Source: Saprospirales bacterium (lineage in GTDB: Bacteria > Bacteroidota > Bacteroidia > Chitinophagales > Saprospiraceae). Taken from it: 33,663 nucleotides of DNA. The DNA lies in contig RECS01000134.1 in the NCBI GenBank assembly GCA_007693915.1, positions 1-33,663 on the forward strand, in the 5' to 3' direction. Each line of letters opens with the position of its first letter. The first letter of the stretch is position 1. The translations under genes were made by a program, and so were the position numbers. The notes beneath the pieces are model-generated. The model was given only the letters and a program-made list of their open reading frames with translations, did not search any database and was not told the origin of the DNA. Positions 1 to 5,807 of this stretch are shown in pieces.

Positions 1-168
1 AATCCACAATCCGCAATCTGAAATCATAAATCATAAATCATAAATCAAAAATCCACAATCTGAAATCCACAATCCGCAATCTGAAATCATAAATCATAAA
101 TCCACAATCTGAAATCCACAATCCGCAATCTGAAATCATAAATCATAAATCAAAAATCAAAAATCAAC
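1..168. repeat. Heptanucleotide tandem array (AATCNNN x 24)
   Basis: From base 1 the sequence reads as twenty-four consecutive 7-bp units, each AATC followed by one of only six trinucleotides (CAC, CGC, TGA, ATA, AAA, AAC), with no phase slip. The order is not random: the series CAC-CGC-TGA-ATA-ATA occurs three times, and a seven-unit block (49 bp) at 50-98 is repeated exactly at 99-147. The array runs off the left edge and stops about 40 bp before the der promoter. Seven is not a multiple of three and no gene is seen across it, so it is read as non-coding. The function is unknown. Confidence 0.95.
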
Positions 169-207
169 ACAATCCACGCTAAAATAGGATATCTCATACA
201 TCTTATT

Positions 208-215
208 TAATTTTG
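208..215 (+). promoter_or_regulatory. -7 promoter element of der
   Basis: TAATTTTG is an exact match to the Bacteroidota -7 consensus TAnnTTTG and lies 20 nt before the der ATG. No convincing -33 TTG is seen at the usual distance. The heptamer array ends 39 bp upstream, so it borders this promoter. Confidence 0.6.
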
Positions 216-235
216 CAGCGAATTAGAATTAGCTT

Positions 236-1537
236 ATGAGCAATATCGTAGCCATAGTAGGCCGACCCAATGTAGGAAAATCCACGCTCTTTAACCGTTT
301 GATCGGTCAGAGAAAATCCATTATTGATGATATAAGTGGAGTTACCCGAGATAGAATCTATGGGGATTCCCATTGGAATGGAAAAGACTTTATCGTCATA
401 GATACCGGAGGTTTTGTCAAAGACTCCGATGACATCTTTGAAGCAGCAATCAGAGATCAAGTAAATATCGCAATAAATGAGGCTTCCGTGATTGTTTTTG
501 TTGTAGATGTAACAACCGGCATTACTGATTTGGATAGTGAAGTTGCAGATATGCTCCGAAAAGGTAAAAAACAGGTAGTACTGGCAGTCAATAAAGTTGA
601 CAACACCAAAAGACATCTGGATGTACCCGAGTTTTGGGGGCTTGGGCTAGACGAACCTATTCCCATCAGCTCAGTTTCAGGATCCGGAACCGGTGAACTG
701 CTGGATAAAATCACCGAACTACTGCCAGAAGAAACTATTGAACAAAAAAAACTTCCCAAAATAGCTATTGTAGGCCAACCTAATGTAGGTAAGTCTTCAC
801 TTACAAATGCCTTGCTGGGAGAGGAACGAAATATTGTGACCGATCAGGCAGGAACAACCAGAGATTCCATCCATACCGAATTCAATAAGTTTGGTCGTGA
901 GCTGCTGCTAATTGATACTGCCGGTATCAGGAAAAAATCAAAAGTCCACGAGAACCTCGAATTTTACTCTGTCATGAGGGCTGTTAAGGCGCTGGAGGAG
1001 GCAGATGTGTGTATTGTAATGGTTGACGCTAAAGCAGGTCTGGAATCTCAGGATGTAAACTTAATCTGGTTGGCCCACAGGAAACACAAAGGTGTGGTAA
1101 TCGTCGTCAACAAATGGGATTTGGTAGAGAAGGAGACCAATACCGCTAGAGATATGGAGCAGCGAATCAAAGAAAAAATTGCTCCATTTTCAGATGTACC
1201 CGTTGTTTTTACCTCTGTACATGAAAAACAAAGACTGTTGAAAGTCCTGGATTTGGCTATTGAAGTTTACGATAGGAAAACCACCGTCATTTCTACCTCC
1301 AAGCTCAATGATATCATGCTCAAGGCCATTGAAAGAAAACCACCTCCAAGTCACAGGGGTCTTTACATCAAGATTAAGTACGTAACCCAATTGCGGGCAG
1401 CCCATCCTGTCTTCGCTTTTTTCTGTAACCATCCTACTCATGTAAAAGACAGCTACAAATCTTTTTTGGAGAATCAGTTGCGAAAAAACTTCGACTTTTG
1501 CGGTGTACCCATCAGTATATTTTTTAGAGATAAATAA
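236..1537 (+). CDS. der: Ribosome-assembly GTPase Der (EngA)
   Basis: Der is a tandem-domain GTPase needed for maturation of the 50S ribosomal subunit. The 433-residue protein has the family's normal length and order: a first G domain with the P-loop GRPNVGKST near residue 9 and DTGG, a second G domain with GQPNVGKSS near residue 179, DTAG and NKWD, and a C-terminal KH-like domain ending in the typical GVPISIFFR tail. Both G domains look intact. The ATG at 236 puts the P-loop at the usual distance from the N-terminus and follows a TAnnTTTG promoter. It is the first gene of a tightly spaced plus-strand series; the next start is 8 nt after its stop. Confidence 0.98.
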   Translation: MSNIVAIVGRPNVGKSTLFNRLIGQRKSIIDDISGVTRDRIYGDSHWNGKDFIVIDTGGFVKDSDDIFEAAIRDQVNIAINEASVIVFVVDVTTGITDLDSEVADMLRKGKKQVVLAVNKVDNTKRHLDVPEFWGLGLDEPIPISSVSGSGTGELLDKITELLPEETIEQKKLPKIAIVGQPNVGKSSLTNALLGEERNIVTDQAGTTRDSIHTEFNKFGRELLLIDTAGIRKKSKVHENLEFYSVMRAVKALEEADVCIVMVDAKAGLESQDVNLIWLAHRKHKGVVIVVNKWDLVEKETNTARDMEQRIKEKIAPFSDVPVVFTSVHEKQRLLKVLDLAIEVYDRKTTVISTSKLNDIMLKAIERKPPPSHRGLYIKIKYVTQLRAAHPVFAFFCNHPTHVKDSYKSFLENQLRKNFDFCGVPISIFFRDK

Positions 1538-3010: not shown

Positions 3011-3065
3011 TTGTGTCTATTTGTTAGACAACCATCAATTATTGAAAAAAATCAGGGTACTTCAA

Positions 3066-5807
3066 ATGTCCTATTGCCTAAAAATTTTATTAGTTTTATT
3101 GCTGGCAGCAACTGCTTTTAGTTCGCTTCATGCTACGCACAATCGAGCTGGAGAAATAAGAGTGGAACAAATAGGCGACCTGACAGTTCGAGCTACAGTA
3201 GTAACATACACCAAGGCTTCCTCAGTGGCAGCAGACAGAGACAGTGTACCAATTGCCTGGGGTGATGGAAATGAAACCTGGGCACCGAGAGTGAACAATG
3301 GAGGGGTGGGAGAAATAGTAGGTGACGATATGAAAATGAATATCTACATTGCTGAGCACACTTATCCTGGTCGCGCAACCTACACCATATCCATGACCGA
3401 CCCCAATAGAATAGCCAATATCCAAAATATTAATTTCCCCAACTCAGATCTCATTCTCTTTTATATTGAAACGCAATTCACCTTTTTAAATCCACAATTT
3501 CAGGGATACAACAATACAGTAGTTCTACTAAACCCACCAATTGACTTCGCCTGTGTAGGGAGAAGATTCGTCCACAATCCAAATGCCTGGGATCCCGACG
3601 GTGACAGTCTTAGTTTTGAACTCATAGAGCCGCTGGAAAGTCCAGGAACACCTGTGCCTCGCTATGAACTACCTGATAGAATTGTACCCGGTCCGGATAA
3701 CCGGCTTACTCTGAATAGCAGAACAGGAGAATTGGTATGGAATTCTCCAAAAGTGAGAGGTGAATTCAATGTTGCTATACGGATAAATGAATACAGGAAC
3801 GGAAATCTCATTGGATCAACTGTCAGGGATATGCAAATAAATGTCCGAACTGATTGTGAAACTGACCCACCAATAATAGAAGCAGCGGATTTATTATGTG
3901 TCATTGCCGGAGATACCATATATGAATCAGTTGTCGCAAGGGTAAATGATGAGAGTAAATTGGTAAGACTTTCAGCTGGTGGCGGACCTATGGAACTCGA
4001 TATCAGTCCCGCTACATTTGATGTTCTCAATGGGTATCAGAATTCTCCGCTTGAGGGTACTTTCATTTGGGAAACGCATTGCAATCACATCAGAGAACAA
4101 TTTTACGATGTGATTTTCAAAGCAGAAGACAATAGCTTTCCTGCTCAGAATGCAGGTTTGGTTGATTTACATACTATGAGGCTCAAAGTATCAGGACCAC
4201 CACCTGAAAACCCCTCGACGGTATCTCAATTGCAGGGCATTGAGGTGCGTTGGGACACCCCCTACAGCTGTGAGGAGACCATAGACGACTACTTTAATGG
4301 ATTTACCATCTGGAGAAAAGTTGGCCCATCTGACATGGATGTGGACATATGCGGAACTAATCCAGCTGATTTTGGATTCACTCCCATTGGTTTTGGAGTG
4401 AATTCCTCAGATGGAGATGGGTATTTTTTTCTTGATCAAACTGCGGAAAAAGGAAAGAGGTACTGTTATGTGATTACCGCCGAGTTTGCATTGAGAACTC
4501 CTGCCGGCAATTACCCCTACAACCGGGTTAACAGTCTGCCTTCAGCAGTGGTTTGCGGACAATTAAAACTAGATATTCCCCTTGTTTTAAAAAATTCGGT
4601 TGAAGTAACTGATCTGCAAAATGGAGAAAGATTGATCCTATGGACAAGACCGCTAGCTGATGACCTAGATACACTAACTAATCCCGGGCCTTACCTATTT
4701 CAATTAATGAGCAGAACAAATCAGGAGGAAGATTTTAGTCCTGTACCAGGAGCGGATTTTACTTTTGATACTTATTCAACAATAACTGATACCTCATTTG
4801 TTGACAGCGGTATCGATACAGAAACAATAAACAGGACTTACCGCGTAGATTTCTATGCGGGAGGATCAAGCGAAATATTTGGCAGATCTCCTGATGCAAG
4901 CGGTGTTTTTTTAGATATATTAAGTGCCAATCGCGAAAATCGACTGATATGGAAACATGAAGTACCTTGGGAAAATCAATTTTATGATATTTTTCTGGTT
5001 ACAGCAAGCGGAGAAATTCTGGACAGTCTGGGCAGGAGTGATGACACTTTCTTTGTACATCAAAATCTTAAGAACTTTGAATCTTACTGCTATCTCGTAA
5101 GGAGCACCGGAACCTATTTTCTCGAGGGAATTCGAACTCCTTTCAGCAATTGGTCACAAGTCAATTGCGGAATCCCAATTGATACCATTCCACCTTGCCC
5201 ACCAATTTTAACGGTAGAAAACATATGTACCCGCGACCCTGCAAGCATAGACTCAGATCAACCATTGACCAATCAATTAACTTGGGAGATCAACATCTGC
5301 GATTTTTTTGAAGATGATATAGAACTTTTTAGGGTTTATTATTCGCCATTTGAAGGGGGAGACGCGGAACTCATTGCCGAATTACCTGCTTCTACCTTCT
5401 CATTTGAGCACTCCACTGCAGATGGCATAGTCGGATGTTATAAGATTACAGCCATAGATACAGTGGGCAATGTCAGCGATTTTAGCAATCAGGTATGCGT
5501 CAACAACTGTCCTGTTTACCGACTACCCAATGCTTTCACTCCAAACGGGGACGGATTTAATGACCTCTTCACCCCTTTCAGACCATATGCCTTCGTAGAA
5601 CGGGTGGAATTTATTGTTTTTAATAGATGGGGGAATAAGGTTTTTGAAACCAACAATCCCGAACTCAACTGGGATGGCAGGTCTATGAGTGGATCTGATT
5701 TAGCAGAGGGTACTTACCACTACATCTGTACTGTTTACTATGCAAACCTTAGTGGTGGGGAATCTTCTTTCCGCCTAAGTGGTTTTATACAATTGCTGAG
5801 AGAATAA
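3066..5807 (+). CDS. T9SS type B sorting-domain (gliding-motility-associated C-terminal) surface protein
   Basis: This is a large secreted protein of 913 residues from the ATG at 3066. That start gives a clean signal peptide (MSYCLKILLVLLLAATAFSS, then LHA before THNRAG); a TTG at 3021 would only add 15 residues in front of it. After an N-terminal beta-rich region containing WDPDGDSLSFELI, three or four fibronectin-III-like modules with paired cysteines can be made out from about residue 375. The last ~95 residues are a type B T9SS sorting domain: PNAFTPNGDGFNDLF, FNRWGNKVFE, WDGR and LAEGTYHY. The family is exported by the type IX system and displayed on the cell surface; a specific ligand cannot be named. 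The gap from rfbD is 55 nt. Confidence 0.9.
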   Translation: MSYCLKILLVLLLAATAFSSLHATHNRAGEIRVEQIGDLTVRATVVTYTKASSVAADRDSVPIAWGDGNETWAPRVNNGGVGEIVGDDMKMNIYIAEHTYPGRATYTISMTDPNRIANIQNINFPNSDLILFYIETQFTFLNPQFQGYNNTVVLLNPPIDFACVGRRFVHNPNAWDPDGDSLSFELIEPLESPGTPVPRYELPDRIVPGPDNRLTLNSRTGELVWNSPKVRGEFNVAIRINEYRNGNLIGSTVRDMQINVRTDCETDPPIIEAADLLCVIAGDTIYESVVARVNDESKLVRLSAGGGPMELDISPATFDVLNGYQNSPLEGTFIWETHCNHIREQFYDVIFKAEDNSFPAQNAGLVDLHTMRLKVSGPPPENPSTVSQLQGIEVRWDTPYSCEETIDDYFNGFTIWRKVGPSDMDVDICGTNPADFGFTPIGFGVNSSDGDGYFFLDQTAEKGKRYCYVITAEFALRTPAGNYPYNRVNSLPSAVVCGQLKLDIPLVLKNSVEVTDLQNGERLILWTRPLADDLDTLTNPGPYLFQLMSRTNQEEDFSPVPGADFTFDTYSTITDTSFVDSGIDTETINRTYRVDFYAGGSSEIFGRSPDASGVFLDILSANRENRLIWKHEVPWENQFYDIFLVTASGEILDSLGRSDDTFFVHQNLKNFESYCYLVRSTGTYFLEGIRTPFSNWSQVNCGIPIDTIPPCPPILTVENICTRDPASIDSDQPLTNQLTWEINICDFFEDDIELFRVYYSPFEGGDAELIAELPASTFSFEHSTADGIVGCYKITAIDTVGNVSDFSNQVCVNNCPVYRLPNAFTPNGDGFNDLFTPFRPYAFVERVEFIVFNRWGNKVFETNNPELNWDGRSMSGSDLAEGTYHYICTVYYANLSGGESSFRLSGFIQLLRE

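What the first reader, a model, noticed from the sequence alone, without database searches (positions are those of the whole stretch)
1..168. Phase-perfect heptanucleotide array with a limited code of six unit types
Twenty-four consecutive 7-bp units AATCNNN are seen with no insertion or deletion, yet the three variable bases take only six values (CAC, CGC, TGA, ATA, AAA, AAC). A simple slipped repeat would tend to be uniform or random; here unit types recur in a fixed order. Three units make 21 bp, about two helical turns, so a protein could read every third unit on one face. It lies just upstream of the der promoter, and no known element type explains it. Roles to consider are a protein-binding array, a regulatory tract or a family of dispersed repeats.
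Basis: partly seen in the sequence, partly recalled or inferred. Interest (0 to 1): 0.65.

Follow-up and report, generated by a model that had tools for sequence, protein, structure and literature searches.

The report
Inverted seven-base repeat element, one arm
The 24 seven-base units are probably one arm of a two-armed repeated DNA element found at several places in this bacterium and in some relatives; it most likely spreads and stretches by copying errors, and nothing shows that a protein reads it as a code.

Summary
The array is real: 24 gap-free AATCNNN units at 1-168, six unit types, 0 expected by chance. The window starts at a contig end, so the array is cut by the assembly. The "fixed order" is a 49-bp higher-order duplication; there is no 21-bp signal.

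Fifteen other regions of the genome hold such arrays, drawn from one small lexicon. Seven arrays or pairs show an inverted plan: (GATTNNN)n - core of 26-34 bp - (AATCNNN)m, with similar cores and different unit types on the two sides. The window array is inferred to be the der-side arm of such a pair: an opposed array follows era on another contig, and era-der adjacency is common in relatives.

Among 199 family genomes, 20 have three or more such pairs, each with its own lexicon; six have the opposite polarity. Examined intergenic pairs mostly abut gene 3' ends. In one relative, pairs built of stop-free units lie in frame inside proteins (PheT, FadH, SNF2, NRPS).

The closest published parallel is the GGGAATC heptamer arrays of Xanthomonas, often in inverted pairs. 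I read this as a new variant of known heptanucleotide repeats, partly like Rickettsia palindromic elements; the copying agent is unknown.

The parts
1..168 (+). 24 tandem AATCNNN units: inferred right (der-side) arm of an inverted heptamer element, cut at base 1 by the contig end
1..63 (+). first higher-order block: CAC CGC TGA ATA ATA ATA AAA CAC TGA
64..112 (+). second block (49 bp): CAC CGC TGA ATA ATA CAC TGA
113..161 (+). third block (49 bp): CAC CGC TGA ATA ATA AAA AAA
162..180 (+). last unit AATCAAC and a degenerate edge (ACAATCCACGCT), outside the alignment to the nearest relative
181..235 (+). der upstream region where alignment to the array-free relative G001 resumes; TAATTTTG at 208-215 resembles the Bacteroidetes -7 box (motif recalled, not tested)
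236..1537 (+). der (EngA GTPase), 433 aa; in G001 the neighbour upstream beyond a DUF2442 gene is era, same strand

Best explanation
The array is the der-side arm of a non-coding, two-armed repeat element lying between era and der (inferred: the two arms are on separate contigs). An element is a core flanked by inverted arrays of AATCNNN heptamers; in seven copies of this genome the cores are 26-34 bp and look related. Most likely the elements spread as units into tolerated places (gene 3' ends, intergenic gaps, protein linkers), and the arms then lengthen and shorten by slippage or unequal exchange of one or several 7-bp units. That gives perfect 7-bp phase, a small shared lexicon and array-specific higher-order repeats. 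Selection against stop codons and lost function decides where they survive. Shown: arrays, inverted pairs, shared lexicon, core similarity, arm asymmetry, position near 3' ends, array-free allele at era-der in one relative, in-frame copies in another. Inferred: that copies move, the slippage step, and the absence of a host function. Unknown: the enzyme.
For: Own genome: four-unit pattern 46+23 matches against control 1+0; inverted pairs 9 matches per strand at five loci against control 0, plus a truncated pair at C42 with the same core as C20 and a second, degenerate core on C20. The six distinct cores, picked and trimmed by eye, score above shuffles at p<0.05 in 13 of 15 pairs. With cores oriented alike, left arms use ATA/ACA/AAA/AGA in 18 of 19 units and right arms in 1 of 27 (set chosen after inspection; 2 of 128 flips as extreme, 4 two-sided; three arms are empty). 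Window site: C136 begins with 55 bases and then an opposed array of 10 units ending 5 bp from the era stop. In G001 (Der 93-94%, Era 92% identical) era and der lie on one contig with a DUF2442 gene between and no array; DNA homology resumes at window 181. Era lies upstream of der on the same strand in 29 of 80 named loci, 27 of them within 430 bp, none with a three-unit AATC array in the gap. Position: within 40 bp of 11 own arrays there are 8 ORF 3' ends (at 6 arrays) and no 5' end; of 29 intergenic elements of five relatives, 23 have a 3' end, 10 of them two, and 4 a 5' end. In G182, 14 of 22 examined elements lie in ORFs of 200 aa or more: 13 of 13 with CGA/CGC/CCA units, 1 of 9 with GTA/GTC units. 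Congeners carry other heptamers, or none, at some of the same linkers.
Against: No transposase, target duplication or autonomous partner was sought or found. Only one allele without array was compared at the window site, and it holds another gene, so loss in G001 is not excluded. Four other congeners (G002, G004, G005, G006) show no Era within the loci fetched around der, so adjacency is not universal. The stretch between C136 and C25 is unassembled, and C136:1-55 does not resemble the other cores. The window arm fits the side rule only in part: 10 of 24 units are ATA or AAA. Several own arrays have no core that I could recognise (C2, C64, C80, C84, C134). Cores of other genomes are not related to the G000 core: a shared 13-mer (L267) is taken as chance, as 0 of 60 flanks around 30 other occurrences are heptameric. 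Two own elements do not fold better than shuffles (z -1.05 and -0.01).
Confidence: 0.6

Rival explanations
1. Purely local expansion: each array arose where it stands by 7-nt polymerase slippage, as proposed for heptanucleotide repeats in general, and inverted partners arose by template switching at a small palindrome.
For: Heptamers are reported as the most abundant long simple repeat category in most genomes of an earlier survey, with a slippage explanation (PMC4679880 section 3, PMC4692102 section 16). In 80 der loci not chosen for arrays, period 7 has 8 segments; of the other periods tested from 4 to 14 only 12 (5), 8 (2) and 9 (1) have any. Block duplications in the window array fit slippage. 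FadH of G182 gains only about 12 residues against 1ps9, so arrays may partly overwrite native loops.
Against: One lexicon shared by dispersed loci, related cores in several copies and side-specific arm types are hard to get from independent events.
Confidence: 0.25
2. Selected RNA structures at gene 3' ends: bidirectional terminators or mRNA-protecting hairpins whose stems are built of heptamers.
For: Bias to gene 3' ends, often between convergent genes. One G156 and one G182 element fold far better than shuffles (z -16 and -10).
Against: The two G000 elements tested fold no better than shuffles and the first 149 bases of the window arm are unstructured (z +2.3). 14 G182 elements lie inside ORFs. 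3' ends are also where insertions do least harm.
Confidence: 0.15
3. The array is a code read by a DNA-binding protein on one helix face.
For: Fixed AATC and a restricted set of NNN types.
Against: No 21-bp periodicity of unit types (2 of 21), order differs between arrays, lexicons differ between genomes, the nearest relative has no array at der.
Confidence: 0.03
4. Terminal addition: broken ends are extended with G/T-rich heptamers by a template-bearing enzyme and then joined, leaving a G/T-rich array, a junction core and an A/C-rich array.
For: Polarity: the 20 genomes with three or more GATT..AATC matches hold 416 of these against 14 AATC..GATT (overlapping matches). A second lexicon behaves alike: TTAG..CTAA reaches three or more matches in 23 genomes, CTAA..TTAG in one (control columns). 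Genome-wide lexicons would follow from a template.
Against: Six genomes have three or more of the opposite order (G188 14, G020 7, G120 4, G097, G183 and G184 3 each). Related cores in G000 argue for copying, not random joining. No enzyme was sought.
Confidence: 0.08

Closest known systems
G-rich heptameric SSRs GGGAATC of Xanthomonas (and GGGGA(C/T)T of Nostoc), PMC4692102 (sections 10 and 16 read, other passages seen)
   Same: Heptamer units, partly heterogeneous ((GGGANTN)n), dispersed, mostly intergenic (89% and 93%), nearer the 5' neighbouring ORF (28 nt against 160 nt on average), 70 and 75 cases of two opposed arrays close together, lengths differ between close species, no function found. 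GGGAATC read in another register is AATCGGG.
   Different: Own unit types have no run of three or more G, so they lack the quadruplex-forming tracts studied there; own arms flank a related core and have side-specific unit types; copies in frame inside conserved proteins occur in the relative G182. The paper counts 11% and 7% of its repeats as intragenic, at least partly overlapping an ORF.
Rickettsia palindromic elements (passages in the review PMC10969869)
   Same: Palindromic repeats inserted in frame in unrelated protein genes, as in G182.
   Different: RPEs are about 150 bp in ten families; no heptamer arrays are mentioned in the passages seen. The window element and the own elements examined are intergenic.
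TAACTGA heptamer direct repeats of Beggiatoaceae, Cyanobacteria and some Bacteroidetes, PMC4679880 (abstract, sections 3, 12, 24 read)
   Same: Heptamer period, intergenic, long arrays in several Bacteroidetes, intergenic regions without obvious repeats in close relatives, contigs ending in repeat regions.
   Different: One fixed heptamer, in BOGUAY mostly just upstream of a start codon, only one indirect repeat reported there; own arrays lie nearer 3' ends.
MITEs and REP sequences (recalled, apart from the review passages)
   Same: Short, dispersed, palindromic, non-coding.
   Different: No transposase, target duplication or fixed terminal repeat shown here.

Membership tests
Heptanucleotide long simple sequence repeats | tandem units of exactly 7 bp, longer than chance | tested here: met
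   21 matches against 0 in shuffles
Heptanucleotide long simple sequence repeats | near-uniform unit | tested here: not met
   four fixed and three variable positions, six types in the window; the published Xanthomonas arrays are partly heterogeneous too
Xanthomonas-type inverted heptamer pairs | two arrays on opposite strands close together | tested here: met
   five complete loci in the own genome; for the window element inferred across a contig gap
Xanthomonas-type inverted heptamer pairs | runs of three or more G able to form quadruplexes | tested here: not met
   no unit type listed gives GGG or CCC within own arrays of the usual types
Rickettsia-palindromic-element-like | in-frame insertion in protein genes | tested here: not met
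   not met for the window element, which lies upstream of der; met in the relative G182
MITE | terminal inverted repeats with target-site duplication | tested here: inconclusive
   arms are inverted arrays, but the edges at era-der could not be defined to the base
MITE | mobilised by a transposase of the same genome | not tested
   no transposase search was run
Intrinsic terminator | stable hairpin followed by a T run | tested here: inconclusive
   two own elements z -1.05 and -0.01; T runs were not scanned

The most novel reading that the evidence does not exclude
A bacterial end-healing or copying system adds G/T-rich heptamers, in a lexicon set by a genome-specific template, at breaks or nicks. 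The result is polar inverted arrays whose vocabulary turns over species by species and which invade both 3' ends and protein linkers: a telomere-like process inside bacterial chromosomes.
Probability: 0.08. Interest if true: 0.92.

Novelty: new variant of a known kind. Interest (0 to 1): 0.6.

Why it matters
Heptanucleotide repeats are reported as over-represented in many bacteria, and the papers I read offer a slippage hypothesis but no shown mechanism or function. A family in which the same linker of PheT or FadH carries different heptamer lexicons, or none, in congeneric species, with a strand polarity that is consistent within most array-rich genomes, gives natural replicates to test slippage against copying, and shows repeats altering the linkers of essential proteins.

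Tried and rejected
Protein-read code: no 21-bp signal. Shared core across genera: the 13-mer TGCCCAAAATTAC was seen in L267 and occurs in 76 of 298 family genomes, but none of the 60 flanks of the 30 fetched occurrences is heptameric, so the L267 match is taken as chance. Universal polarity: rejected, six of 199 genomes have three or more matches in the opposite order. Stable RNA hairpin in own elements: not seen in the two tested. C136:1-55 as a repeated sequence that explains the contig break: a 21-base piece of it occurs once with up to 2 mismatches. Simple insertion inside proteins: FadH of G182 is only about 12 residues longer than 1ps9 there, and the FadH and PheT linkers of plain congeners are not much shorter, so arrays may have replaced part of native loops.

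Not in print: I found no description of such elements in Saprospiria in the listings (CC-licensed PMC papers only). Passages of PMC6749651 and PMC4060949 name heptamer satellites and inverted repeats in general. Subscription papers, among them Mrazek 2007, were not seen.

Full report
Observation. The 24 AATCNNN units at 1-168 are exact and in phase, with six unit types. The window is the start of contig C25 of a 3.43-Mb, 197-contig genome, so the array is truncated by assembly. Unit types repeat at 49 bp (9 of 17, p 0.001; best of 12 lags), not at 21 bp (2 of 21) (TRF period 49). The recurring order is therefore a higher-order duplication of blocks of seven units (nine in the first block).

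Family in the genome. The three- and four-unit patterns give 80 and 69 matches against 3 and 1 for the reversed pattern. I fetched 15 regions besides the window; they hold 16 arrays of three units or more. C13, C52 and C76 have only three units, and the C98 array (AAA only) lies beside a different heptamer array of AATAGTC/AACAGTC type. In the 16 arrays the nine commonest NNN types make up 94% of 80 units, against 18% of 872 AATC sites outside arrays. One window type (AAC) is not among those 80 units.

Anatomy. Arrays at C20, C52, C85 and twice on C95 are arms of inverted pairs. C42 shows the C20 core, one arm and the start of the other at a contig end, and C20 carries a second, degenerate core. 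Six distinct cores (26-34 bp between GATT and AATC, picked by eye) were compared: 13 of 15 pairs align better than shuffles at p<0.05, the exceptions being C52-C20a (0.076) and C95b-C20a (0.126). With cores oriented alike, left arms use ATA/ACA/AAA/AGA in 18 of 19 units and right arms in 1 of 27; the set was chosen after seeing the arrays, and three of 14 arms are empty. I recognised no core at C2, C64, C80, C84 or C134.

The window element. Contig C136 begins with 55 bases, then an array of 10 AATC units on its + strand, which is opposed to the direction of era; the array ends 5 bp from the era stop (Era by Pfam). A 21-base piece of the 55 bases occurs once in the genome. In G001, the nearest of seven congeners searched, era is followed by a 99-aa DUF2442 gene and der. 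Homology to G001 resumes at window 181 on the der side and runs through the era stop on the other side. Among 80 named der loci, 29 have the Era C-terminus upstream on the same strand, 27 of them within 430 bp, and none has a three-unit AATC array in the gap. I infer that C136 and C25 are the two arms of one element between era and der; the stretch between them is not assembled. The left arm has ATA, AAA and ACA units apart from one edge unit (AAC). The right arm has CAC, CGC and TGA in 13 of 24 units but ATA or AAA in 10, so it fits the side rule only in part. Four other congeners with a der locus (G002, G004, G005, G006) show no AATC array in the 150-500 bp upstream that I printed and no Era in the loci held; G005 has a different heptamer array (GTCAACT/ATCAACT). 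G003 and G007 gave no der locus.

Relatives. 19 of 60 genomes (own one included) have four-unit arrays, with lexicons that differ by genome, for example AAA/GCA in G026, TTA/TCA in G050, ATA/TAA/TCA in G053. In 199 family genomes, 58 have at least one GATT..AATC inverted match and 20 (own one included) have three or more; the reversed control reaches three in one genome (G218, 7), and about twenty genomes have one or two control matches, so single matches are near chance. The opposite order AATC..GATT occurs in 46 genomes and reaches three in six. TTAG..CTAA and CTAA..TTAG, the control patterns, reach three in 23 and one genomes. These counts include overlapping matches and were read from the printed tables. 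Polarity is thus strong within array-rich genomes but not universal. In a scan of fetched loci for other 7-bp pairs, six were G/T to A/C, none the reverse, six ambiguous; the 34 AATC-type pairs (33 and 1 ambiguous) were mostly selected by a pattern that fixes polarity.

Position. Within 40 bp of 11 own arrays there are 8 ORF 3' ends, at 6 arrays, and no 5' end (mechanical ORFs). The eleven leave out C13, C76, C98 and C134 of the 15 regions, and the window arm, which lies 67 bp from the der start and has no ORF end within 40 bp on its own contig. Of 29 intergenic elements of five relatives, 23 have a 3' end within 40 bp and 4 a 5' end.

Elements in proteins. I fetched 20 G182 regions, covering the 22 elements listed among 157 matches, and 20 regions of four other genomes. 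In G182, 14 of 22 elements lie in ORFs of 200 aa or more, two of them (L217, L231) of doubtful coding status; none of the 21 elements of the other four genomes does. All 13 G182 elements with CGA/CGC/CCA units are in ORFs, against 1 of 9 with GTA/GTC units. CGA and CGC arrays have no stop codon on either strand, while GTA arrays have stops on one. The proteins include PheT, FadH, a SNF2 helicase, an acyltransferase and NRPS domains. In congeners, the PheT linker carries heptamer units in 4 of 5 sequences examined and the FadH linker in 4 of 5; the fifth is plain (G090, G229). Other linkers show other heptamers, such as TCATCCC (L272), CCAATAC (L259) or ACAACGA (L275). Only 30 loci were returned of many more matches, and three of ten sequences of one gene escaped the DNA extraction.

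Mechanism. Slippage of 7-bp units explains phase and block duplications. A shared lexicon, related cores and side-specific arms in G000 suggest that whole elements are copied. Stop-free lexicons inside ORFs and stop-bearing ones outside suggest selection after insertion or growth. The copying agent is unknown and was not sought. A host role is not shown: the two own elements tested do not fold better than shuffles, although one G156 and one G182 element do.

Known parallels. Xanthomonas GGGAATC arrays match most closely in period, dispersal, inverted pairs and location (PMC4692102). Rickettsia palindromic elements match the in-frame insertion seen in G182 (PMC10969869 passages). TAACTGA repeats (PMC4679880) are heptamers with a different anatomy. 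Hence: new variant of a known kind.

Noticed in passing
L153 (G000:C98:23400-25900), 1150-1251: A second heptamer lexicon, AATAGTC/AACAGTC, directly beside an AATCAAA array in the same genome.
   Followed up: no
G122, G150, G164, G021, G208 (control columns): Strong excess of TTAGNNN..NNNCTAA inverted pairs (140, 61, 49, 30, 26 matches), a telomere-like heptamer family not searched for on purpose.
   Followed up: no
G182 loci L218-L236: Palindromic heptamer elements in frame inside conserved proteins, including two sites in one NRPS adenylation region and two in one SNF2 helicase.
   Followed up: partly
G188: A genome with the opposite arm polarity (AATC array left, GATT array right, 14 matches against 0 of the usual order).
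   Followed up: no
L041, L102, L032 (der loci of named Bacteroidota): der loci not chosen for arrays hold heptamer arrays of quite different units (TTGTTCG, CTTACAA, CAGTGGT, TCAACTG); period 7 is the commonest.
   Followed up: partly
window 3021-5804: 928-aa protein whose only Pfam match at E<=0.001 is a C-terminal type IX secretion signal domain.
   Followed up: no
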